From Gracilibacter sp. BRH_c7a (lineage in GTDB: Bacteria; Bacillota; Desulfitobacteriia; Desulfitobacteriales; Syntrophobotulaceae): a stretch of DNA of 64,000 nucleotides. Position numbers and translations under genes: made by a program. The stretch spans positions 1-64,000 of the forward strand of contig LOEZ01000096.1 of assembly GCA_001516055.1 (NCBI GenBank), written 5' to 3'. The notes beneath the pieces are model-generated. The model saw only the letters and a list, made by a program, of their open reading frames with translations. It did no database searches and was not told the origin of the DNA. Of the stretch, positions 26,100 through 63,524 are shown piece by piece; within the stretch, counting starts at the first letter, position 1; each line of letters opens with the position of its first letter.

Positions 26100-26135
26100 T
26101 TACCGCTAATCCAGGTGCCATCGAGAGGAGAAAAA

Positions 26136-28982
26136 ATGTTTAAATTTAAAAAATATCTTATTGTTGTTTTATCCTTGACCTTATTATTGTCAGGACTGAC
26201 TCCAAGTACCGGCTGGGCTGTGACTGACGATAGTTCTACCGCCCTCGTTACCAGAAGTTATGATCCTGAGGGGATTCGATTGGTAGTGGAGATAAGCCCC
26301 GGATTGGAGCTGGAGGCTTTAGCCTCAGCCAGCGGCGGAGAACTTGTCCGAACCGGACCACTGAACTATGCTACTTTAGAATTCAAGACCATCCTTAATG
26401 AAAAACCACATGATTCAGTATATTATAAGGAAGAAAAGTTACAGGAAGTCCTTGATTACCCTGGTGTATTAAGTGCCCAGTGGAGCGAGACTTTCACCGT
26501 CCACAATGAAATTATCCCCTTGGAAGACAACTCATTCACTGCGACAGGTAGCTTTTCCGTTATGGATATTGACCCCGAATACTCACTCCAATGGTACCTG
26601 AGAAATATCAGAGCTGATAAAGTTTGGGATACAGGGACTACCGGAGAAGGTATTATAGTAGCAGTCGTAGATACGGGCGTAGATCTGACGAATCCGGAAT
26701 TTAAAGATCCCAGTTCAGGAAGGAACAATCTTGTCCAAGGCTATAACGCTTTTACCAGAAGCTCTGATTCGGAAGATGTTCAGGATGATAATGGCCACGG
26801 TACGGCCATGGCCGGAGTGATCGCTGCCCTAAAGGATAATAACAAAGGGATAGTCGGTATCGCCCCTGATGCCAAGATTATGCCGATTAAGGCAATGGAT
26901 GCAGATGGTGAGGGCGAAGACAGCATTATTGCCGACGGCATTATTTGGGCTGTCGATAATGGAGCTAAGATTATTAACTTAAGTATAGGATCAGAGGAAC
27001 AATCCAAGATACTCGATGATGCCCTGAAATATGCTGCGGATAAAGGATGCCTCTTGGTTGGGGCTTCTGGGAATAAGAAGGGCTTTGACGATGGCCAACC
27101 GATTCAGTCAGACCAGACCCAAGAGCCCATCAGTAACGAGGTAGCCTATCCTGGGGCTGATCCTAATGTTCTGGCAGTTTCTGCCGTGGACAGATATGAC
27201 CGAATCACTGACTTCTCTCTAATCGGACCGGAAGTAAGACTTAGTGCTCCGGGAAATCGAATCCTGACTACTTTTTGGTCCCCTGATGAGATAGGACTGG
27301 CTTATTCCACAGGGACATCTATTGCTACACCCTTAGTATCGGCCTCTGCTGCTCTGCTCTGGAGTGGATATCCAGAACTTACAGCTCAAGACATCGAGCG
27401 GGCACTCTTCAGCTCAGCCTCCGACCTGGGAGCCAGAGGACAGGACGATCAGTACGGTTTCGGCAGAGTGGATGTCTACCGTGCTTTCCAGACCCTGCAG
27501 GAACAAGAGTCTTATTCCTCTCCTGCCAGCCTGGGTTGGGAAGGCGGCAAGATTTATACAGGGGGCACAGCCGCAGAACCCACAGCCGAACTCACGGTCC
27601 AGCCGGGAACATTCAGCCTTCAGGTAGATAACCAGGGCAGGGATGAGAGAATCAGCTTTTCTATAGGTGAGGATACTTCTCCGGCAGATTTCCCGACAGG
27701 GATTATCCCCGCCGGTGATACCTATAGCATCAGTCCCTGGGGGGAAGAACTTGTCTCCAAACCGCTCACCCTCACCCTTAAGCTGACACCTCTTGAAGTA
27801 CAGACTGAAGAAACAGATAATCAGGAAGCAGTTGAGACTGAAGATCCATCTGAAGCTGAAGGGATGACTGAAGCAGAAGAAACACCTCAAGCAGAAGAAA
27901 CAGGCGCGAATGAAGAAGCAGTTGAAGAAGATTCACCGATAACAGAAACGAATGATCCCACAGAAAAAAATATTTCCTACTTATATAAATGGAGCAAAGA
28001 CAGATGGATTAGAGTAGGGGGAGGTGTCTCCCAAGACTCACCAACCATGCAAGTCACTATCTATGAACCCGGTACCTATCGAGCAGGCTGGAGCCCAGAA
28101 CCGGAAAGCAATCGTATTTCCGGCAGTAATCGTATCTCTACCGCTTTGGAGATTGCTAAAGAAGCTTTCCCTACAGGAGCGGATACAGTCATAGTCGCCA
28201 GAGCCGATACTTTTCCCGATGCTTTGGCAGGAGCACCATTGGCCTACCAACTTCATGCACCCATCCTCCTGACATTCCCTGAACAGCTTCCCCTGGAAGT
28301 CTACCAGACCATAGAAGAACTTGCGCCTGAGAATATTATAATCCTAGGCGGTACTGGAGCGGTCTCCCCAACCGTGGAGAACCAACTGGCGAACTTTACT
28401 TATGTATCTCGAATAGCGGGAACTAACCGTTATGGAACAGCTGCAGCCGTAGCGGAGATCATGGGTAACAAAGGCCAGGCTGTCGTTGTCAATAGCCTTG
28501 ACTTCCCTGATGCCATAGCTGCGGCCTCTCATGCCGCCTATCAGGGGAAGCCTATCCTTCTCACCCCAGCGGGTGACCTTAACAAAGAAACGGCAGATGT
28601 CCTGAAGAGACTGTCCGTTACCGATATCCAAGTCATAGGGGGAACCGGCGTCATCACCCCTGAGGTCTTTGACCAACTCATTCATCCCACCAGACTAAGC
28701 GGTATTAATCGTTTCGCCACCTCGGCAGAGGTCATCCAAGCTAATCCTCCCGAAGGCAGGATTCTCTATATCGCCACAGGGCTGAACTTCCCCGATGCCC
28801 TTACAGGTGGAGTAATTGCTACCACTAACTTATCTAATATTCTCCTTATCCCTCAAGCCGGGCCTACAGAGATACAGATTCAGCTCCTTCAGACCTTGCA
28901 AGGCAGAAAAGTTATAGCCTTAGGAGGCGAAGGTGCGGTAAGTATCGATGCCTTGCAGAAGGTACAGGAATTAGTCGAATAA
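26136..28982 (+). CDS. CWB2-anchored subtilisin-like serine protease
   Basis: 948 aa. Start is ATG 26136, just after the site GAGAGGAG; the upstream GTG (26115) would place that site inside the gene. Signal peptide about 1-30; propeptide-like region to about 145. Peptidase S8 domain (about 150-450): Asp in VAVVDTGVDL, His in DNGHGTAMAGV, Ser in STGTSIATPLVSAS. An acidic Glu/Thr linker (about 560-610) leads to three CWB2 repeats (about 665-948), e.g. RISGSNRISTALEIA, FPDALAGAPLAYQL and IIILGGTGAVS. It is likely a wall-tethered protease for maturation or turnover of surface proteins; S-layer substrates are inferred from position. It is the last gene before the S-layer locus. Confidence 0.92.
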   Translation: MFKFKKYLIVVLSLTLLLSGLTPSTGWAVTDDSSTALVTRSYDPEGIRLVVEISPGLELEALASASGGELVRTGPLNYATLEFKTILNEKPHDSVYYKEEKLQEVLDYPGVLSAQWSETFTVHNEIIPLEDNSFTATGSFSVMDIDPEYSLQWYLRNIRADKVWDTGTTGEGIIVAVVDTGVDLTNPEFKDPSSGRNNLVQGYNAFTRSSDSEDVQDDNGHGTAMAGVIAALKDNNKGIVGIAPDAKIMPIKAMDADGEGEDSIIADGIIWAVDNGAKIINLSIGSEEQSKILDDALKYAADKGCLLVGASGNKKGFDDGQPIQSDQTQEPISNEVAYPGADPNVLAVSAVDRYDRITDFSLIGPEVRLSAPGNRILTTFWSPDEIGLAYSTGTSIATPLVSASAALLWSGYPELTAQDIERALFSSASDLGARGQDDQYGFGRVDVYRAFQTLQEQESYSSPASLGWEGGKIYTGGTAAEPTAELTVQPGTFSLQVDNQGRDERISFSIGEDTSPADFPTGIIPAGDTYSISPWGEELVSKPLTLTLKLTPLEVQTEETDNQEAVETEDPSEAEGMTEAEETPQAEETGANEEAVEEDSPITETNDPTEKNISYLYKWSKDRWIRVGGGVSQDSPTMQVTIYEPGTYRAGWSPEPESNRISGSNRISTALEIAKEAFPTGADTVIVARADTFPDALAGAPLAYQLHAPILLTFPEQLPLEVYQTIEELAPENIIILGGTGAVSPTVENQLANFTYVSRIAGTNRYGTAAAVAEIMGNKGQAVVVNSLDFPDAIAAASHAAYQGKPILLTPAGDLNKETADVLKRLSVTDIQVIGGTGVITPEVFDQLIHPTRLSGINRFATSAEVIQANPPEGRILYIATGLNFPDALTGGVIATTNLSNILLIPQAGPTEIQIQLLQTLQGRKVIALGGEGAVSIDALQKVQELVE

Positions 28983-29294
28983 AAATAAGATATCCTTCAT
29001 ATTATAGTCGTCAGGAATTTATCTGTTTTCCGTCTAATAATATAGAAGAGATGTAACATTATCGACCTGTACTGTACTAAAACAGATGAGGATAATTTGT
29101 CAGGAAATTATAAAGAATTATTAATATTTACCAAATGTACTAGAAATAAATCAATTATTATTGTAAAATACTTACACATACTGTCTTCTACTTATATAGG
29201 TACCAATAACTAACATATTCTTCTATTCCTTGAAAAAGTTATTCTGAACAAGCAGGAATATTGAACTCTTTACAGAATATTATCATGGAGGTAT

Positions 29295-29565
29295 AGAAGC
29301 CTTTATTTGTGCTTCTTTTACCATAAAGGCAGTCTAGAGGGATAGCCGCCCCTGGGGAACGAGGCTCAGAGGGGGGACGCCCCCGTTTGGGTGGTGCCTT
29401 TAGATATTGCGCAATGTCTGAAGATTAACTTCGCGACACTACCAAGGAGGTGAATTAAGCGTAACACGCATCCAAGGCAGGAAAGCAGATAAATACAAAA
29501 CCTAACAAGTATCTGTTCTTCCAAGACACAATTACCCTTTTTAGAAAGAGAGGAGATTAGACTAA
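29295..29565 (+). ncRNA. Structured 5' leader of S-layer gene 1, copy 1
   Basis: This leader shares a core with the leader of S-layer gene 3 (60128-60311): CGAGG loop, GGGTGGTGCCTTTAGATATTG, a GATATT-GCGC-AATGTC hairpin and AAGGAGGTG. In the first hairpin CCCCTGGG (29349-29356) pairs with CTCAGAGGGG (29365-29374); in copy 2 the matching arms are CCCCTAAG and CTTAGAGGGG, so paired bases changed together. TAAAGGCA (29324-29331) can pair with TGCCTTTA (29395-29402) or, via ATAAAGGC, with GCCTTTAT (29299-29306), a switch-like choice. No match to a riboswitch I know. It could equally be an mRNA-stabilising leader. Confidence 0.5.
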
Positions 29566-32500
29566 ATGATTAGAACGAAGAAGATAGCAATTTTAGCTAT
29601 CATCGCTATGGTTTTGACTATGATGCCTGCTGCAATGTTCGCAGCTGACAGCGACAGACTTGCAGGTGCTAACCGTATTAGCACAGCAATTGCAATCGCT
29701 GACGCAGGTTGGGAAACTGCTGACGCAGTAGTACTTGCTCCTGCCGACCAAGACAACCTCGTTGACGCTCTGGCTGCAGCTCCATTGGCAGGCCAGGAAG
29801 ATGCTCCGATACTATTAACTTACAAAGGTGCTCTCAGTGCTGACGTTCAAGACAAAATTGAAGCTCTGGGTGCTACCACAGTTTATGTAGTCGGTGCTAT
29901 CTCCGCTGACGTATTGGCTGCTGTAGATGCAATCGATGGTGTGACAGCTGTACAACTCTCTGGTGCAAACCGTTGGGCTACTGCTGATGCTATCAATGCT
30001 GAATTAGACAGCCCTGCTGGAACATTCGTAGTTGGCTACGATGCTATCGCAGATGCTCTTTCAGTAGCTTCCTATGCTGCTGCAAACGGTTTTGCTATCG
30101 TATTGAGCAAAGCTGATGGTACAGTAGATGAGTCCAAACTTGTTGGCGACGTAACCTACCTGGTAGGCGGAACCGCAGTTGTTAAGGACTATGAAGGCGC
30201 TACCCGTCTTTCCGGTGCTAACCGTTTCGCAACTAACGCTGCTGTTGCAGAAGGTCTATCCTTCGAATATGACGATGTTTATGTCGCTAATGGTGTAAGC
30301 CTGGTTGACGCTCTTGCAGTTGCTCCTTTAGCAGCTAAAGCTAATGCTTTCGTACTGCTTGCTAGCACTTCAGACGTTGAATCAATCGATGGTGTTACTG
30401 CTGCTACTAACGTTATTGCAGTTGGTGGAACTAGTGTTGTTCCTGCTAGTGTTGTAGCTGATGTTTACGATGCTGGTGGTGAATTCGCAGTTGAATCTGC
30501 TGAAGCTTCTAACCTTATCCAGGTCGTTCTCGAATTGAGCAACGATAATTACTATGATGAGGACGAACTCAAAGATGAAGATAACTATGAGTTCGAAGGC
30601 GAAGTCGGTAACAAAACTGGCGTCGAAATTCTCGTCGATGAAGTTGTAGTAGATGGAACTACAGTTACTCTTAACCTTGATGAAGCTGTCGACAATCAGA
30701 CTGTTGGCGAACTTGTCATCGATAAGAAAGTAACTGGTACAGAAGTTGTCTTCGAAGACATTGAGTTCTTTGACAAAGACATCCCGACAATTGAATCAGT
30801 TAAAGTTATTGGTGAAGATTTAGTTAAAGTTACTTTTAGTGAGCCAATTAACTTCTATGCTGATGGTGACAAGAAAAGTGATGCTACTGCACCTGCAGTT
30901 CTCGCTGCCTTACCTGCTTTAGAAGACGAGTTTGATTTTGAACTTGACAGCAAATCCTACAGTGTTGATGTATTGGGACCAACAGAAAACGATACCGAAG
31001 TAAACATCGTGGTATATGGTTCATTCAAAGAGGGTGAACTGACTGTTGAAGTTGACAACGGTTTAGAAGACTATGCTGGTTTCAATGTAACAGCTAAGAC
31101 ATTTACAATGGATGTAGTTGAAGATGTTGATGCTCCTGAAGCAAATGGCTACAAGGATGCTGAAAGAGATGAAGTTACTCTTATCTTTAACGAAGCTGTA
31201 AAATTAACCAGTGATGCTGAAAAAGAAGACTTCTATCACACTAATAGTAATGACCATGTGAATGATCTTACTGATGTAACTTTTGATGATAACGAAGTAA
31301 CAATGGTCTTTGACCAGGAGCTACCAGAAGGTACTGCTTATGTTTACATCAAGAGTGGTGCTATCGAAGACTACTGGGGTAATGAAAACAGCACAGTAAA
31401 AGTTAAAGTTCAAGTCGACGTCGATGAGACTGCTCCAACTATTGAGGAAGTCGAATTTGATGGCGATGACATCGTAATTACCTTCTCTGAAGAACTCGAT
31501 TCCGATTCTGCTGCAGATGAAGATAACTATGTTGTGCTTAATGCCACTGACAGTGACGATGAAGTTAACATCCGTAGTGCGGTATATACTAAAAACAGTG
31601 ATGATGAAGGCGTTGTTACTCTTAAACTAAGAGACCCAGCCGATGACCTCGACGAAGGCGATACCTATGAGATTTCTATCGTAGACGTTGAAGACCTTGC
31701 TGGTAACGAAGTAGAAGATTATTCAATCGAGCTTGAATACACTGATCAAAATGAACCCACATTACGTGGCGTCTATGTTGACTTATCAGATGCTGCTAAA
31801 GACGAGTATGTTATCTATGCTGAGTTCAACGAAGCGTTGACTGACGAAGGTGCCTATGCTGCTGATGATCTCTATAAATATGAGCTCATTATTAACAGCG
31901 GGGCTACTCAAGAAGAGTACAATCTCGGTGAAGCAGCTGATGATGATGATGACAATATCGATGTTGAAATCGAATTAGCGGACAGTAACAAAACTGTTAA
32001 GATTACAGTTGACACTGCCGAATTTGCCATCGCAGGTGGTAGCGATGATACTATCGATAATGGAGACTCTGTTCTCACTGTCGGTAGAGTAGCAGATACA
32101 GATGATAACTATACAGCGTTTGCAACAAGTAAACCCATCAAAGACCTCGAAGAAAGATCTATTGGTTTTGCAGAAGTAAAAGCTACAGCAAAAGATACTA
32201 TTGAAGTTAAATTTAATGGTAACCTCGATGATTACGAAATTGAAGATTTCTATGTATCACTGGGTACATTAAGTACAACTACCACTTTAGATATTGAATC
32301 AATTGATGTAGTAGATGCTGACGAGATTATTGTCTATATGGATGATAAACTTCCTGCTGATACCACAAACTATTGGTTGAATACTATATCTTCAGGAGTC
32401 GAAACAGAGAACGCTTTTGGTGCTAAAATTGCTACCAATGCTACGATGGAAATTGAAGATGAAATTGTACCTGCAGTCGCTGAGCTAGATAATGAAGATA

Positions 32501-32856
32501 CCGATGAGACTTATTCCTGGAACCGTGTTACTACTCACGAAAATATAGGTTCAGAAGATGATGTTCAGACTGTATATGCAGCATATGATGGAACAACAAC
32601 TTCCACTATTACCATTGTATTTAATGAGGCACTCGTAGCCGGTTATATTAACGGTAACTTAAGTCTTGTTGAACTTAATGGAGACGACAGTGATCTTGTA
32701 GTAACTGACGTTCAATTAACCTCAGCTGATACAATCGAAATTACTGTTACAGGTGAAGTTCTCAGAGGTGACGACATTACTATAGAAGTAGTTCAAGATA
32801 CTAATGGTAATCGTGCCTATGATATCGACCTGAACGTTGAATACGCTATTCAGTAG
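29566..32856 (+). CDS. CWB2 S-layer protein 1
   Basis: 1096 aa. Signal peptide (about 1-27, cleavage near AMFAAD). Three CWB2 repeats (about 28-310): RLAGANRISTAIAIADAGW, DNLVDALAAAPLAGQEDAPILLT, SYAAANGFAIVL. Then several Ig-like/SbsA-type domains with recurring VKVTFSEPI, DDIVITFSEELD and VYIKSGAIEDYWGNEN motifs. The composition is strongly acidic (Asp/Glu) with almost no Cys. N-terminal CWB2 and size are typical of clostridial S-layer proteins such as SlpA/Cwp. RBS AAAGAGAGGAGATT. Long structured leader upstream; terminator at 32904. Its first 900 bp are nearly identical to gene 3 (60312). Confidence 0.92.
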   Translation: MIRTKKIAILAIIAMVLTMMPAAMFAADSDRLAGANRISTAIAIADAGWETADAVVLAPADQDNLVDALAAAPLAGQEDAPILLTYKGALSADVQDKIEALGATTVYVVGAISADVLAAVDAIDGVTAVQLSGANRWATADAINAELDSPAGTFVVGYDAIADALSVASYAAANGFAIVLSKADGTVDESKLVGDVTYLVGGTAVVKDYEGATRLSGANRFATNAAVAEGLSFEYDDVYVANGVSLVDALAVAPLAAKANAFVLLASTSDVESIDGVTAATNVIAVGGTSVVPASVVADVYDAGGEFAVESAEASNLIQVVLELSNDNYYDEDELKDEDNYEFEGEVGNKTGVEILVDEVVVDGTTVTLNLDEAVDNQTVGELVIDKKVTGTEVVFEDIEFFDKDIPTIESVKVIGEDLVKVTFSEPINFYADGDKKSDATAPAVLAALPALEDEFDFELDSKSYSVDVLGPTENDTEVNIVVYGSFKEGELTVEVDNGLEDYAGFNVTAKTFTMDVVEDVDAPEANGYKDAERDEVTLIFNEAVKLTSDAEKEDFYHTNSNDHVNDLTDVTFDDNEVTMVFDQELPEGTAYVYIKSGAIEDYWGNENSTVKVKVQVDVDETAPTIEEVEFDGDDIVITFSEELDSDSAADEDNYVVLNATDSDDEVNIRSAVYTKNSDDEGVVTLKLRDPADDLDEGDTYEISIVDVEDLAGNEVEDYSIELEYTDQNEPTLRGVYVDLSDAAKDEYVIYAEFNEALTDEGAYAADDLYKYELIINSGATQEEYNLGEAADDDDDNIDVEIELADSNKTVKITVDTAEFAIAGGSDDTIDNGDSVLTVGRVADTDDNYTAFATSKPIKDLEERSIGFAEVKATAKDTIEVKFNGNLDDYEIEDFYVSLGTLSTTTTLDIESIDVVDADEIIVYMDDKLPADTTNYWLNTISSGVETENAFGAKIATNATMEIEDEIVPAVAELDNEDTDETYSWNRVTTHENIGSEDDVQTVYAAYDGTTTSTITIVFNEALVAGYINGNLSLVELNGDDSDLVVTDVQLTSADTIEITVTGEVLRGDDITIEVVQDTNGNRAYDIDLNVEYAIQ

Positions 32857-56630: not shown

Positions 56631-59600
56631 TTGAATAAAAAGAAAGCAATAGCTGTTATAGCTATCATTGCGATGGTTTTCACGATGATGCCTGTTGCAT
56701 TGTTTGCTGCAGACACGGAGAGTACAAGACTAGCAGGAGCGAGCCGGGTGGAAACTGCTCTTAAAGTATGTGACGCCGGTTGGCAATCTGCAGAAACAGT
56801 AATCCTCGCCCCTTCCGACCAGGAGAATCTTGTTGATGCTCTGGCCGCTGCTCCCTTGGCCGGGCAGGAAGAAGCTCCCATCCTCGTAACTCCCAAAGGG
56901 TCCCTAGATCCTTCTGTTAAAGCGAAGATCTCCAGTCTTGGAGCTAAAAAGGTTTATGTTATCGGGGCAATCTCTGATAAAGTGAAAAATGAAGTCGCTG
57001 CTTTGAGCGGTATTACTGTGATTAAACTTGCAGGTTCTAATAGGATTGCCACTGCCAAAACGATTACTGCTGAACTTGATAATCCTTCGGGTACTTTTGT
57101 CGTCGGTGTTGAAGGAATGGCAGATGCCCTCGCGGTAGCCTCCTATGCTGCGGCAAATAACTTTGCTATAGCTATCGCCAATGCTGACGGCAGTATTGCC
57201 CAGGCTGACTTAGTAGGAGACATCACCTATATCGTAGGCGGAAAAACTCGTGTGAAAGATATCCCTGGTGCCAAACGGTTTGCAGGCAATAACCGCTTCT
57301 TGACCAATGCCGAGGTAGCGAAAGGTTTATCCTATAACTTCGATAACGTATATGTAGCCAACGGAATCACCCTTGTAGATGCTTTATCCGTAGCTCCTTT
57401 GGCTGCCAGGAATAGGTCCTTCGTCTTACTGGTAAGCACAAATGAGGTTCTTTCCATAGAAGGTATCACCAATTCTACCAGGGCTATAGCAGTTGGTGGG
57501 ACGGCTGTAGTTCCTGCCAGGATCATAGATAGAGTCGGCTCTGGCAACAGTCAGCCGGATGCAGAGTTTGAGGTTCAAGCACTTAATCTTCTTCAGCTGA
57601 CGGTAGAGCTGGACGATAGTGACTATGATAAAGAGGCCCTGGAAGATGTGAACAATTATGACTTCGAAGGCTATGTAGATGATGCACGCAGAAGTATTAA
57701 TATCGTTGATGCAGAGATTGACAGGTCTATCGTTACCTTGACCCTGAAAGAGTCAGTAGATAATCAGAGTGAAGCCACCTTGGTTATCGATGAAGATCTC
57801 GCCGGGAAAGAACTGACCTATAAGAATATCGAATTTCTGGACAGAAAGGTCCCTGAAGTCGAAAGTGTCGAAGTCATCGGCAAGGATACTGTTAAAGTGA
57901 TCTTCAGTGAGCCTATGACCGATCTGGATGATATGGAAGATGAATTCGAACTGGAGATGGATAGTAAGGAGTATAGTGTCGATCAGGTAGTAGGCCTGGA
58001 TCATAATTATGAGGCCAATATCACTGTCCGTGGGGAATTTGAAGAAGATACTCTGGCGGTGGCTGTCGGCAGCGGTCTGACAGATCATGCCGGTTTCAAA
58101 GTGGAGGCTGAATCCTTCGAGATAGAGGTGGAGGAAGATACCGATCCACCAGAGGTTATAGGTTATAAGGATGCCACCAAGCAGGGTGTCACCCTGATCT
58201 TCGACCAGGATATCAGGATCGAAGATGATGACCGGGATAACTATTACCATACCAATGATGATAATCATATCGATGATGATATCGATGAAGATGTGGACTT
58301 GAATGGAAATGAACTGACTCTGAAATTCACAGATAATCCTCTTCCAGAAGGGCGGAGCTATGTCTATGTATCCTCCGGTGCGGTGGCTGACCTCTGGGAT
58401 AATGAAAACAATCTGCTTAAACTCAGGGTAGATATCGAAATGGATGAGGTAGTTCCCATTGTTAACAAAGTAGAATACGATAGCGATAGTAACGTAATAA
58501 CCGTGATTTTCTCCGAAGATATGGATGATGACAGCGCCGAAGGTGCAGATAATTACACCTTGGTCGATGAGGATGGAGAAGATGTCAGAATAAGCAGCGC
58601 TGAACTGGACGATGATGAAGTTACGCTGGAGCTCAGAGACAGTAATCCTGAGCTAGGTACCTACAAGCTGACTATTCAGGATGTGGAAGATATCGCTGGG
58701 AATCCGATTGCAAAGGTAACATTTAATGTAAAGATTGATGATACCAACCCACCTGAATTTCCTGATTCTGTCTATTATCAGGGCTCAGGCTCGGATTACA
58801 CATTTTATGTAGAATTCAGTGAAGCGATGGCTGTAAGTGGCAACTATTCGATTAAGGATCTCTCTAAGTATGCTATCTTTGATGAGTCCGAGGACAGGTA
58901 TATTGACCTGGAGAGTGCTGAAGAGGATGGCGAATTCGATGTAGATCTGTCTCTTACCGATGGCAATAAGTCTGTTAGGATTGCTGTTGATGGTTTTGAT
59001 CTTGATCCTGAGGAAGATACCTTTATTATTAACCGGGTGGCAGATCTTCGGGGCAATTATACAGAAAGATTCAGCAGTAGTAACCTTGAATTCGTATCTA
59101 TGGAGAATAAAACCATTGAGATTGCAGCGGATGGGGTATTTGCCACCGATAGGACTACCATCGAAGTAGAATTTGAGGAGAGCCTGGATGTTTATGAGGT
59201 CGATGATTTCTTCATCGAAGTAGATGGTGAGGAGAGCGATTATATCATCGCCGGCCTGGAAGTAGAGGAAGACAATAAGATTATCCTCTATATCGATGAG
59301 GATACCATGCTGCCTTCCGATCTCAACGATAGCGGGGAGATCCTCAGCCTGGCCACCAGAGGTGGAGACGGGGATGAGGATTATACCATCGAATCTGAGA
59401 ATTCTTATGGTTCCAAACTAGAGGCCGGGCAGTCTAAGCCTATCGTCGATAAGATATTACCGGGTCTGGTGGAACAAAATGATAAGGATACCGACCGGCC
59501 ATATGCAGGCAGTGGAAAAAATGGATCGGATGATGGAGTTCCAATCGTCTATGGGGTTTATTCCGAGGCTTCAGACTTCACTATGGTAACTGCAGAGTTT

Positions 59601-59828
59601 GATGAGACCTTGAAAGCAATCGATGAAGATATTATCAATGTCAACGATGGTGATAATGAGGTATTAAATGTCCTGAGTGATGGGACCAGTGGAACATTGA
59701 TATTCATCGTGGATGGAGAATTGGATAGAAGAGACGATATCGAGATCGCTATTATCCGGGATGAAGCTGGTAACTACGAAACGGACTTTGAGTTCGAAAT
59801 TGAATACGAGGTAGAAATAGAAGACTAA
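56631..59828 (+). CDS. CWB2 S-layer protein 2
   Basis: 1065 aa; TTG start 56631 with AGAGAGGAGATGTAATA. Signal peptide about 1-26. Three CWB2 repeats (about 30-305; NLVDALAAAPLAGQEEAPILVT, SYAAANNFAIAI) then Ig-like modules with VKVIFSEPM and VITVIFSEDMDDDSAE. Same architecture as genes 1 and 3, but the sequence and codon use are more diverged and the conserved leader RNA is absent. It may be a minor or differently regulated S-layer subunit. Confidence 0.9.
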   Translation: MNKKKAIAVIAIIAMVFTMMPVALFAADTESTRLAGASRVETALKVCDAGWQSAETVILAPSDQENLVDALAAAPLAGQEEAPILVTPKGSLDPSVKAKISSLGAKKVYVIGAISDKVKNEVAALSGITVIKLAGSNRIATAKTITAELDNPSGTFVVGVEGMADALAVASYAAANNFAIAIANADGSIAQADLVGDITYIVGGKTRVKDIPGAKRFAGNNRFLTNAEVAKGLSYNFDNVYVANGITLVDALSVAPLAARNRSFVLLVSTNEVLSIEGITNSTRAIAVGGTAVVPARIIDRVGSGNSQPDAEFEVQALNLLQLTVELDDSDYDKEALEDVNNYDFEGYVDDARRSINIVDAEIDRSIVTLTLKESVDNQSEATLVIDEDLAGKELTYKNIEFLDRKVPEVESVEVIGKDTVKVIFSEPMTDLDDMEDEFELEMDSKEYSVDQVVGLDHNYEANITVRGEFEEDTLAVAVGSGLTDHAGFKVEAESFEIEVEEDTDPPEVIGYKDATKQGVTLIFDQDIRIEDDDRDNYYHTNDDNHIDDDIDEDVDLNGNELTLKFTDNPLPEGRSYVYVSSGAVADLWDNENNLLKLRVDIEMDEVVPIVNKVEYDSDSNVITVIFSEDMDDDSAEGADNYTLVDEDGEDVRISSAELDDDEVTLELRDSNPELGTYKLTIQDVEDIAGNPIAKVTFNVKIDDTNPPEFPDSVYYQGSGSDYTFYVEFSEAMAVSGNYSIKDLSKYAIFDESEDRYIDLESAEEDGEFDVDLSLTDGNKSVRIAVDGFDLDPEEDTFIINRVADLRGNYTERFSSSNLEFVSMENKTIEIAADGVFATDRTTIEVEFEESLDVYEVDDFFIEVDGEESDYIIAGLEVEEDNKIILYIDEDTMLPSDLNDSGEILSLATRGGDGDEDYTIESENSYGSKLEAGQSKPIVDKILPGLVEQNDKDTDRPYAGSGKNGSDDGVPIVYGVYSEASDFTMVTAEFDETLKAIDEDIINVNDGDNEVLNVLSDGTSGTLIFIVDGELDRRDDIEIAIIRDEAGNYETDFEFEIEYEVEIED

Positions 59829-59898: not shown

Positions 59899-60127
59899 GT
59901 TAAAATATAAAGAATAAAGAATTGTTGTTGCTGTTAAATTATTACATATAATTAAAAATAGATAAAATTTGGTTTTAATATGCCCTTAAACATTATAACT
60001 TACCATTTATAGTTAAGAATACCCACAAATTACTATTTGCACGTGAGTATATTTTAAGGTTTAATATTAAATATACTAGTTACATATCCGAAGAGTTTTA
60101 TGTACTAGTATAAACTTAATTTCTATT

Positions 60128-60311
60128 GGCCACTGCCCCTAAGGACGAGGCTTAGAGGGGGACGCCCCTGCTTGGGTGGTGCCTTTAGATATTGCGCAAT
60201 GTCTGAGGATCAATTCTGTGACGCAAAACAAGGTGGTGAGACGCGCTTCTTTTACAGTTTAATAGTTTCACAGCTGAATTGACCCCTAAAAAAGAGAGGA
60301 GATTAGACTAG
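60128..60311 (+). ncRNA. Structured 5' leader of S-layer gene 3, copy 2
   Basis: Counterpart of 29295-29565. Hairpin CCCCTAAG (60136-60143) with CTTAGAGGGG (60151-60160) around loop GACGAGG, then GGGGG-ACG-CCCC, GGGTGGTGCCTTTAGATATTG and AGATATT-GCGC-AATGTCT. GGC-CAC at 60128-60133 can pair with GTG/GCC near 60176-60183. Upstream DNA (59900-60127) is A/T-rich with no ORF. Copy 1's alternative pairing region is not conserved here, which weakens a switch model for it. Confidence 0.5.
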
Positions 60312-63300
60312 ATGAACAAAAGTAAGAAAATAGCAATTCTCGCTATTATCGCTATGGTTTTGACCCTTATGCCAGCTGCACTGTTCGCAGCAACAGCTGA
60401 CAGTAACAGACTTTCAGGTGCTAATCGTATTGGCACAGCTCTTGCAATCGCTGACGCAGGTTGGGATACTGCTGATACAGTAGTACTTGCTCCTGCAGAT
60501 CAAGACAACCTCGTTGACGCTCTGGCTGCTGCTCCATTGGCAGGCCAGGAAGAAGCTCCGATTCTTTTAACTTACAAAGGTGCCCTTAATGCTGATGTTA
60601 AAGACAAAATTGAAGATTTGGGTGCTACCACAGTTTATGTAATCGGTGCTATCTCAGATGCAGTACTAGCTGAAGTTGATGCAATCGATGGCGTTACTGC
60701 GGAAAAGCTTTCCGGTGCTAACCGTTTGGCTACTGCTGATGCTATCAATGCTAAACTGACCAGCCCAGCTGGATCATTCGTAGTTGGCTACGATGCTATC
60801 CCAGATGCTCTTTCCGTAGCTTCCTATGCTGCTGCAAATGGATATGCTATCGTATTGACTAAATATGACGGTACAGTTGATGCGTCTAAACTCGTTGGTG
60901 ACGAAACTTATTTGGTAGGTGGAACCGGAGTAGTTAAAAACTATGCTGGTGCTACTCGCCTTTCCGGTGTTAACCGTTATGCTACTAACAAAGCTGTAGC
61001 TGAAGGTCTGACCTTTGAATATAGCAAAGTATATGTTGCTAATGGCACAAGCCTGGTTGATGCTCTTGCAGTTGCTCCTTTAGCAGCTAAAGCTGATGCA
61101 TTCGTACTGCTAGCCAGCACTACTGCTGTTGAAGCTATCGATGGCGTTACAGCTGCTACTGACGTTATCGCAGTAGGCGGTACCAGTGTTGTTCCTAATA
61201 GCATAATAGACAAAGTAACTGCTGGTAATGACGAAGATTTCGACGTTAAATCCGTTGAGACTTCTAACCTTATCCAGATCGTTCTTGAACTGAGCAACGA
61301 TGATTACTATGATGAAGATGAGCTCAAAGATGCTGACAACTATGTGTTCGAAGGTGATGTAGAAGGTACCAACAATAAAGAAATCGGCATTGCTGATGTT
61401 GATGTTGATGGTGCTAAAGTTACACTTACACTAGAAGAAGCTGTATTGAATCAATCAGATGCAACACTCGAGATTGATGACGCTGTAACAGGCGAAGAGC
61501 TTGAGTTTGATATCGACTTCTTCGATACTACTCTTCCTGTTATTAAAGATGTACAAGTAATTGGTAAAGATACAGTAAAAGTTACTTTCAGTGAACCAAT
61601 CGCTAACCTTGCCGACAGCGATGACGAATTTGACTTCGATCTGGATGGCAAGTCCTACAGTGTGGATACCGTTACCGCAGCTAAGAATGACACTCAAGCT
61701 AAAGTATCAGTGTATGGAAGCTTCTCCGAAGGTACACTGACTGTAGAAGTTGGCAATGGCTTTGAAGACTATGCAGGTTTCAATGCTGCAGCTAAGACTT
61801 TTGAAGTAGATGTCGTAGAAGACTCAGCAGCACCTGAAGTAGTAGGCTATGAAGATGCCAGTCGTGACGAAGTTACTTTAATCTTTGATGAAGACGTAAG
61901 ATTCACCGGATCTGAAGAGATCGCTGACTTCTATCACACCAATAGTGGTAACACTGTTGATAATGATGGCGGCGAGCCTGATGTATCCATCAGTGGTAAA
62001 AAAGTTACCCTGAACTTCTCAAGCAATGAGCTTCCAGAAGGTTCTGCTTATGTTTACATCAAGAGTGGTGCACTTGAAGACTTCTGGGGTAACGACAACA
62101 GTACTATTAAAGTTAAAGTCGAAGTAGATCTTGATGACACTAAACCAGTAGTAGAAGAAGTCGAATTCGATGGTGAAGATATAGTAATTACCTTCTCCGA
62201 AGAATTAGATGGTGATTCTGCTAAAGATACTGATAACTACACCGTAGTTAACCCTGAAGGTAAAGAACTCTCTATCCGTACTGCTTCTTATGAAGCTAAT
62301 GCTGATGACGAAGGTGTTGTAACCTTAGATATCAGAGATACCAATCTTAAAAAAGGTAACTACGAGCTAACCATTGAAGGTGTAGAAGACCTAGCTGGTA
62401 ACACAGTGGTCAAGTATGACACCGAGTTGGAGCTTGAAGATTCCGCTGCTCCTGTATACCCAAGTAAGATTTTCGTAGATGAAAAAGAAACTGATGAGTT
62501 CATCCTCTATGTGGAATTTAATGAAGCTATGGCCATAGATGGTCAATACTCTGTTAAAGACCTGCACAAGTATGAAATCACTGATGATTCTACTGGTGAT
62601 GTAATCAACCTTGGTGATGCAGCTGAAAAATCTAATGATGGAATCGATGTAGTTCTTGCTATGATCGATGGCAACAAGACTGTTAAGATTACAATTGAAG
62701 GCTTTGAACTCGAAGTTGGTGTAGATACACTTCAAATCGGTCGTGTAGCTGATACTTTAGGTAACTTAACCGCTATGGTAAGTGCTAATCTTGACACAGC
62801 CACACTTGACGCGAAGGAAATCCTCATCGAAGAAGTAGTTGCTACTGCTAAGGATAAGCTAGAAGTTGAATTCAATACTAACCTTGATTCTTACGAAGCC
62901 AATGACTTCATCGTCTGGGCAGATGCTGACACCGATGGTGTTGTTGATGCAGGAGAAACAGTCTATAACGTTGAGTCTCTCGAAGTTGTAGATGGTGATG
63001 AGATTATTCTTGAGTTAGAAAATAATCTCCCAACCGGTGTTGAAGCTGCAGATATTAAAGTTACTACCGAGGCTGATGCCAACATTGGTACCGAAAATAT
63101 CTTTGGAGCTAAACTTAAAGGCGATCATATTGCTAAAGTGGTAGTTGATGAAGTAGATGTAGAAGTAGTTAAGGATAATAATGTTAAAACTACTGACGTT
63201 TATGGCACAGCCGGTACTGAAGACAAGGTTGCAGCAGTTTATGCAACTTATAACGGTACTACTACTAATAGCACAATTACCATTAAATTCTCTGAAGCAG

Positions 63301-63524
63301 TCCAGTATGTTAACGAAGCTACTTTCATTGTAAACGGCGGAGATAACACAGTTCTTTCAATTGTCGATAATGGTGATGACGATGGAACAGTTATCTTTAC
63401 TGTAGAAGGTGAAGTACTCAGAGGCGATGATATTAGCGTAGTTATCCTTCAGGATGCTGCAGCTAAAGCGAACTCCGTAAAAGATCTAGCATTACAAATT
63501 GAATACCATGTTCCAACTGTATAG
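60312..63524 (+). CDS. CWB2 S-layer protein 3
   Basis: 1070 aa; ATG 60312 after AAAAGAGAGGAGATT. Signal peptide about 1-27, three CWB2 repeats (about 29-310), then acidic Ig-like modules (VKVTFSEPI, IVITFSEELDGDSAK, VYIKSGALEDFWGND). Close paralogue of gene 1 with long stretches of near-identical DNA over the CWB2 half. Probably the main S-layer subunits are 1 and 3. The direct-repeat arrangement could recombine. Confidence 0.92.
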   Translation: MNKSKKIAILAIIAMVLTLMPAALFAATADSNRLSGANRIGTALAIADAGWDTADTVVLAPADQDNLVDALAAAPLAGQEEAPILLTYKGALNADVKDKIEDLGATTVYVIGAISDAVLAEVDAIDGVTAEKLSGANRLATADAINAKLTSPAGSFVVGYDAIPDALSVASYAAANGYAIVLTKYDGTVDASKLVGDETYLVGGTGVVKNYAGATRLSGVNRYATNKAVAEGLTFEYSKVYVANGTSLVDALAVAPLAAKADAFVLLASTTAVEAIDGVTAATDVIAVGGTSVVPNSIIDKVTAGNDEDFDVKSVETSNLIQIVLELSNDDYYDEDELKDADNYVFEGDVEGTNNKEIGIADVDVDGAKVTLTLEEAVLNQSDATLEIDDAVTGEELEFDIDFFDTTLPVIKDVQVIGKDTVKVTFSEPIANLADSDDEFDFDLDGKSYSVDTVTAAKNDTQAKVSVYGSFSEGTLTVEVGNGFEDYAGFNAAAKTFEVDVVEDSAAPEVVGYEDASRDEVTLIFDEDVRFTGSEEIADFYHTNSGNTVDNDGGEPDVSISGKKVTLNFSSNELPEGSAYVYIKSGALEDFWGNDNSTIKVKVEVDLDDTKPVVEEVEFDGEDIVITFSEELDGDSAKDTDNYTVVNPEGKELSIRTASYEANADDEGVVTLDIRDTNLKKGNYELTIEGVEDLAGNTVVKYDTELELEDSAAPVYPSKIFVDEKETDEFILYVEFNEAMAIDGQYSVKDLHKYEITDDSTGDVINLGDAAEKSNDGIDVVLAMIDGNKTVKITIEGFELEVGVDTLQIGRVADTLGNLTAMVSANLDTATLDAKEILIEEVVATAKDKLEVEFNTNLDSYEANDFIVWADADTDGVVDAGETVYNVESLEVVDGDEIILELENNLPTGVEAADIKVTTEADANIGTENIFGAKLKGDHIAKVVVDEVDVEVVKDNNVKTTDVYGTAGTEDKVAAVYATYNGTTTNSTITIKFSEAVQYVNEATFIVNGGDNTVLSIVDNGDDDGTVIFTVEGEVLRGDDISVVILQDAAAKANSVKDLALQIEYHVPTV

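What the first reader, a model, noticed from the sequence alone, without database searches (positions are those of the whole stretch)
29295..29565. Paired S-layer leaders with base-pair-preserving changes
Leaders of genes 1 and 3 share a core. In the first hairpin an A-U pair in copy 2 is G-C in copy 1, and a neighbouring A-U is G-U, while the loop (CGAGG) and the GATATT-GCGC-AATGTC hairpin stay constant. One compensatory pair is modest but points to conserved RNA structure over about 180-270 nt. It could stabilise very abundant mRNA or sense a ligand.
Basis: seen in the sequence. Interest (0 to 1): 0.72.

Follow-up and report, generated by a model that had tools for sequence, protein, structure and literature searches.

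The report
Conserved RNA leader of S-layer genes
The stretch of messenger RNA in front of this bacterium's cell-coat (S-layer) gene carries an intricate folded structure that evolution has kept, pair by pair, across a whole order of anaerobic bacteria, and it matches no catalogued RNA family, so it is probably an undescribed control element for one of the cell's main surface proteins.

Summary
The two leaders (cores 29332-29426 and 60121-60211) share 84% identity over ~108 nt, and P3 shows exactly the changes described (CUGGG/CUCAG versus CUAAG/CUUAG). Homologues occur in 52 of 73 genomes of the order (17 of 22 genera). Every copy with a readable downstream gene (about 70 of 74 examined) precedes the same kind of CWB2 S-layer-like gene. 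None was found elsewhere in the phylum. A covariance model built only from another family finds both window copies. P2 is supported by an alignment-free permutation test (0/20000) and, for two pairs, a tree-aware test. The structure is P1 closing P2, a variable P3 hairpin and an invariant-loop P4 (GACG). The 3' strand of P1 can instead pair with a downstream repeat, giving two near-isoenergetic folds. A sigma-H-like promoter lies at a fixed place upstream (47 primary copies), so the core is probably transcribed. A start-less Shine-Dalgarno-like AAGGRGGUGA follows, 122 nt before the AUG, as in the cry3A STAB-SD stabiliser. No Rfam match, no terminator, no predicted switching of SD access. Best reading: an order-specific orphan cis-acting leader RNA, most likely raising mRNA stability or output; sensing is possible but unshown. 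Identity with the published 'SLH motif' could not be tested.

The parts
29140..29168 (+). distal promoter-like block (CTAGAAAT...TTGTAAAA), conserved in 35 of 47 relatives
   Evidence: background 61 of 1581 random stretches; role inferred
29252..29280 (+). sigma-H-like promoter GCAGGAATA-N11-ACAGAATAT; predicted start of transcription about 29287
   Evidence: same motif at a fixed place in 47 primary leaders, background 0.3%; only consensus match in the window
29290..29322 (+). P0, hairpin near the predicted 5' end (GGUA..GAAGC/GCUUC..UACC); strong in the window's family, weak in Desulfosporosinus
   Evidence: single-sequence folds; consensus fold failed on a poor alignment
29333..29340 (+). 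strand A, 5' side of P1 (UCUAGAGG)
29346..29394 (+). P2 (29346-29351 with 29389-29394), closing the junction that holds P3 and P4
29352..29369 (+).
29371..29384 (+). P4 hairpin GGGGG-GACG-CCCCC, loop nearly invariant
29397..29404 (+). strand B (CCUUUAGA): pairs with A (P1) or with C (hairpin)
29398..29423 (+). hairpin CUUUAGAUAUU-GCGC-AAUGUCUGAAG; its 3' part 29417-29423 is strand C, a copy of A
29444..29453 (+). element D, AAGGAGGUGA: perfect Shine-Dalgarno sequence without a start codon, 122 nt before the AUG
   Evidence: at least 9 of 10 matches in 62 of 74 leaders at fixed distance, none in 1189 background stretches
29548..29555 (+). true Shine-Dalgarno sequence GAGAGGAG
29566..32856 (+). 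S-layer-like protein: signal peptide, 3 CWB2 repeats, Big_5 Ig-like domain
60121..60211 (+). second copy of the RNA core (A strand decayed, P2-P4 and hairpin B:C kept)
60230..60239 (+). element D of copy 2 (AAGGUGGUGA)
60312..63524 (+). S-layer-like protein downstream of copy 2

Best explanation
This is a cis-acting structured 5' leader RNA, specific to one order of anaerobic Firmicutes, that is transcribed from a sigma-H-type promoter as the first ~280 nt of the S-layer-like mRNA and acts after transcription on that mRNA. Shown here by comparison: the P1/P2/P3/P4 fold, the alternative hairpin, element D, and strict linkage to one gene type. Inferred: the folded 5' domain shields the transcript, and a 30S subunit docked on the start-less Shine-Dalgarno element D blocks 5'-to-3' decay (the STAB-SD principle of cry3A), giving the long-lived mRNA a major surface protein needs. 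The competition of strands A and C for strand B would let a protein, a processing enzyme or a ligand tune this state.
For: Found in 52 of 73 genomes and 17 of 22 genera of the order, always upstream of the same type of gene. A model built from another family finds the window's copies genome-wide at E 1.8e-10 and 1e-5. 93% of cells paired, 19 of 31 pairs with double changes, though on an alignment fitted to the structure. Two P2 pairs significant against a tree-aware null among all column pairs. P2 permutation on 21 genus-level representatives 0/20000, no alignment needed. Sigma-H-like promoter at a fixed distance. Element D far above background and without a start codon, at the distance of STAB-SD in cry3A (129 nt; PMC4113751). 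No terminator, and no change of SD or D access between the two folds.
Against: No transcript, half-life or probing data. Element D and the folded core may do separate jobs. In folds of the free RNA, D is often predicted partly paired (mean 24% unpaired), which would hinder docking. Secondary copies in Desulfosporosinus have the core without the sigma-H-like promoter.
Confidence: 0.5

Rival explanations
1. Riboswitch or other sensor: the P2-P3-P4 junction binds a small molecule (or an envelope signal) and P1 (A:B) versus hairpin (B:C) is its switch.
For: B can pair with A (6-8 of 8) and with C (8-12 pairs) in almost every copy; changes in A, B or C keep both (L051, L056, L001). The two folds lie within about 2 kcal/mol on average. 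P4 loop and junction bases are nearly invariant. An S-layer leader RNA, the SLH motif, was proposed as a riboswitch candidate (PMC6429828).
Against: No expression platform found: no terminator and no difference in SD or D access between the folds. Only one gene type is controlled and it makes a structural protein, not an enzyme or transporter. P1 is imperfect (A:B 6-7 of 8) in much of Desulfosporosinus. A and C could be alike because both must pair with B in a transient folding path.
Confidence: 0.25
2. Autogenous or protein-mediated control: the S-layer protein or an RNA-binding protein binds the P4/junction and represses or protects the mRNA when export is saturated.
For: Strict one-to-one association with one protein type, including paralogous genes with their own copies; confinement to one order; invariant GACG loop and GCGC loop.
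Against: No binding partner known; gene 56631 of the same type lacks the leader. The idea of S-layer autoregulation through a leader is from memory (Thermus slpA) and no held paper confirmed it.
Confidence: 0.17
3. DNA-level element: the palindrome TTTAGATATTGCGCAATGTCTAAA is an operator for a transcription factor and the rest is leader by chance.
For: The hairpin is a near-perfect, strongly conserved inverted repeat.
Against: P2 and P3 covary and lie outside it. The repeat keeps an asymmetric T-G (a wobble in RNA, a break in DNA) in almost all copies, and lies ~120 nt inside the predicted transcript.
Confidence: 0.05
4. A short upstream reading frame started from element D attenuates the gene.
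For: D is a perfect Shine-Dalgarno sequence.
Against: No ATG, GTG or TTG is conserved at a usable distance after D.
Confidence: 0.03

Closest known systems
SLH motif RNA (riboswitch candidate, Stav et al. 2019, PMC6429828)
   Same: conserved structured RNA in leaders of S-layer protein genes in anaerobes, function unknown
   Different: that motif sits before genes with SLH domains in Synergistaceae, Clostridia and Negativicutes; this one was found only before CWB2-type genes of one order; the published consensus is a figure and could not be compared
cry3A 5' mRNA stabiliser (STAB-SD), Bacillus thuringiensis (PMC4113751)
   Same: start-less Shine-Dalgarno sequence 122 nt (cry3A: near -129) upstream of the start codon of a very abundant protein
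   Different: cry3A is not reported in that review to have a conserved folded domain upstream; stabilisation not shown here
Lactobacillus acidophilus slpA untranslated leader (cited in PMC6482533)
   Same: S-layer mRNA leader predicted to fold and to protect the mRNA
   Different: a large stem-loop predicted by computer in one species; no family with covariation; a different organism and gene

Membership tests
Any Rfam 15 family | covariance-model score at or near the gathering cut-off | tested here: not met
   no hit in the window at gathering, nothing relevant up to E 10 at 29000-29600, none in the leaders of 20 diverse relatives up to E 1
SLH motif RNA | consensus sequence and structure of the published model | not testable with these tools
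   the model is a figure; no representative sequence was held
SLH motif RNA | upstream of genes with SLH domains (about 60% of members) | tested here: not met
   both downstream window genes have CWB2 (PF04122) repeats and no SLH hit; relatives begin alike
SLH motif RNA | occurs in Synergistaceae, Clostridia and Negativicutes | tested here: inconclusive
   no hit outside the order in 398 genomes of the phylum; exact-core scan of genome contigs gave 35 hits, none titled as Synergistaceae or Negativicutes; those groups were not searched with the model
Riboswitch | ligand binding | not testable with these tools
   needs in-line probing
Riboswitch | expression platform (terminator or masked SD) coupled to the aptamer fold | tested here: not met
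STAB-SD stabiliser | Shine-Dalgarno sequence in the leader that does not start translation | tested here: met
   (sequence only)
STAB-SD stabiliser | 30S binding and longer mRNA half-life | not testable with these tools
   needs toeprint and decay assays
Sigma-H promoter | match to RnAGGAwWW-N11/12-RnnGAATww (consensus from memory, not confirmed in a held paper) | tested here: met
   the literature look-up found nothing

The most novel reading that the evidence does not exclude
A new class of two-state leader RNA that senses the state of the cell envelope or a signalling molecule and, by switching strand B between A and C, controls the lifetime of S-layer mRNA rather than its termination or start-site access.
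Probability: 0.2. Interest if true: 0.78.

Novelty: new member of a known kind. Interest (0 to 1): 0.55.

Why it matters
S-layer proteins are among the most abundant proteins a cell makes, yet how their output is set after transcription is poorly known. Here is a compact, testable RNA shared by the order that includes Desulfosporosinus (about 70 natural variants collected), with a clear anatomy: promoter, folded domain, alternative helix, ribosome-docking-like element. It gives an orphan RNA family for ligand screens and a natural test of whether start-less Shine-Dalgarno elements stabilise mRNA outside Bacillus.

Tried and rejected
Known RNA families: rejected. Pairing of element D with the P4 3' strand: considered by eye because GGRGGUG complements CGCYYCC, but the A/G variant of D does not follow the Y in P4 (mismatches in L001, L035, L051, L056); not pursued. 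Pairing of an AGACA site near the true SD with strand C: present in 29 of 71 leaders versus 17% in shuffles, mostly absent from Desulfosporosinus; too weak. Intrinsic terminator: none. SD masking by either fold: not predicted. A consensus fold of P0 from a MAFFT alignment failed, so P0 rests on single-sequence folds. Plasmid and viral collections: no match.

Full report
Observation. The leaders of the two S-layer-like genes at 29566 and 60312 were compared directly: one block of 91/108 identities (E 1e-25) and one around the Shine-Dalgarno sequence and signal peptide; the rest of the intergenic sequence does not align.

Distribution. A 151-nt probe found matches in 52 of 73 genomes of the order, 17 of 22 genera, up to 93% identity. 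I collected 74 copies in all. Wherever a downstream gene could be read (some copies sit at contig ends), it encodes a protein with the same start (M..KKTKKALASLAIAGM...A.VFA), followed by the CWB2-like repeats where I read on. In the window both proteins carry three CWB2 repeats and a Big_5 domain. A covariance model (R1) was built from 15 sequences of the other large family only. It finds the window's own copies genome-wide at E 1.8e-10 and 1e-5, recovers the whole order and adds paralogous copies in several Desulfosporosinus-like genomes, but finds nothing in 9 genomes of the rest of the class, nor in the members outside the order of a 398-genome sample of the phylum. An exact-core scan of 84,980 species gave 35 stretches. 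Their titles name mainly Desulfosporosinus, with Acididesulfobacillus, Paradesulfitobacterium, Ca. Dichloromethanomonas and several 'Peptococcaceae', 'Desulfitobacteriaceae' or 'Bacillota' assemblies.

Structure. P1 pairs strand A (UCUAAAGG) with strand B (CCUUUAGA). P2 (for example CCACCC/GGGUGG, CCACAGGA/UUCUGUGG, CCACUGGA/UCCAGUGG, CUGC/GCAG) closes a junction with a variable hairpin P3 and P4 (GGRGG-GACG-CYYCC, loop nearly invariant). On 57 distinct sequences 93.2% of cells pair, 19 of 31 pairs show double changes, and none of 500 shuffles reaches any of the five measures. That alignment was fitted to the structure, so I added two checks. A tree-aware null (changes of each column re-placed at random on the tree) left two P2 pairs significant among all ~5000 column pairs (E 0 and 0.04). 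Several P3 pairs had E of 1-8 over all pairs; if only the 31 proposed pairs are tested these would fall below about 0.05 (that rescaling is mine). An alignment-free swap test on 21 genus-level or paralogue-level representatives gave own P2 strands a summed duplex energy of -300 against -249 +/- 12 for permuted partners, 0 of 20000 permutations as low.

Alternative helix. Strand B also forms the 5' arm of the hairpin CUUUAGAUAUU-GCGC-AAUGUCUAAAG, whose 3' arm (strand C) repeats strand A. Nearly all haplotypes keep both pairings. In L051 and L056 strand B has changed and both A and C still match. In the L059 group A/B changed from GG/CC to AA/UU. Changes in C in the primary copies are mostly A-to-G opposite U. 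The two folds differ by about 2 kcal/mol on average. This is consistent with a switch but does not prove one, and folding does not predict that either state changes access to the Shine-Dalgarno sequence or to element D. No intrinsic terminator was found.

Flanking signals. A motif AGGAATATT-N-GAATA lies at a fixed distance (148-166 nt before the hairpin loop for nearly all) in 47 primary copies, against 0.3% of random stretches. In the window it is the only literal match to RnAGGAwWW-N11-RnnGAATww (29252-29280, expected 0.11). I take it for a sigma-H promoter; the consensus is from memory and I could not confirm it in a held paper. A second promoter-like block lies ~110 nt further up in 35 of 47. 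About 20 nt after the hairpin follows element D, AAGGRGGUGA: at least 9 of 10 matches in 62 of 74 leaders, never in 1189 background stretches, 73-201 nt before the AUG in all but degenerate cases and 122 nt in copy 1, with no conserved start codon behind it. The cry3A stabiliser STAB-SD is a Shine-Dalgarno-like sequence near -129 that binds 30S without starting translation and blocks RNase J1 (PMC4113751).

Comparison. No Rfam 15 family matches. The nearest published thing is the SLH motif, an orphan riboswitch candidate upstream of SLH-domain genes (PMC6429828). Its gene type differs, but I could not compare structures, so identity is open. Three other RNA surveys I checked do not mention an S-layer motif or these genera in their main text. 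A slpA leader in Lactobacillus acidophilus has been predicted to protect its mRNA (PMC6482533).

Verdict. A real, order-specific, structured cis-acting leader RNA (about 0.93). Mechanism: mRNA stabilisation or output with ribosome docking on D 0.5; sensor 0.25; protein-mediated feedback 0.17.

Noticed in passing
29140-29168: Second conserved promoter-like block about 110 nt upstream of the sigma-H-like promoter; tandem promoters would give a longer leader.
   Followed up: partly
56631-59828: Third paralogous S-layer-like gene (3 CWB2 + Big_5) with a Shine-Dalgarno sequence but no structured leader.
   Followed up: partly
26115-28982: Subtilase with three CWB2 repeats directly upstream of the leader; CWB2-like proteins also precede the leader in many relatives.
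   Followed up: partly
33638-56470: Long run of genes between the two S-layer copies that looks, by a glance at the reading frames only, like a polysaccharide or glycosylation cluster.
   Followed up: no
L026 and relatives (Desulfosporosinus), upstream of the sigma-H-like site: GUCCGA...UCGGAC inverted repeat between the two promoter-like blocks.
   Followed up: no
L096: Paralogous copy in which the RNA core runs almost directly into the Shine-Dalgarno sequence, without C and D; probably decaying.
   Followed up: no
L051:1618-1887: Bacterial large SRP RNA next to the leader on the other strand.
   Followed up: no
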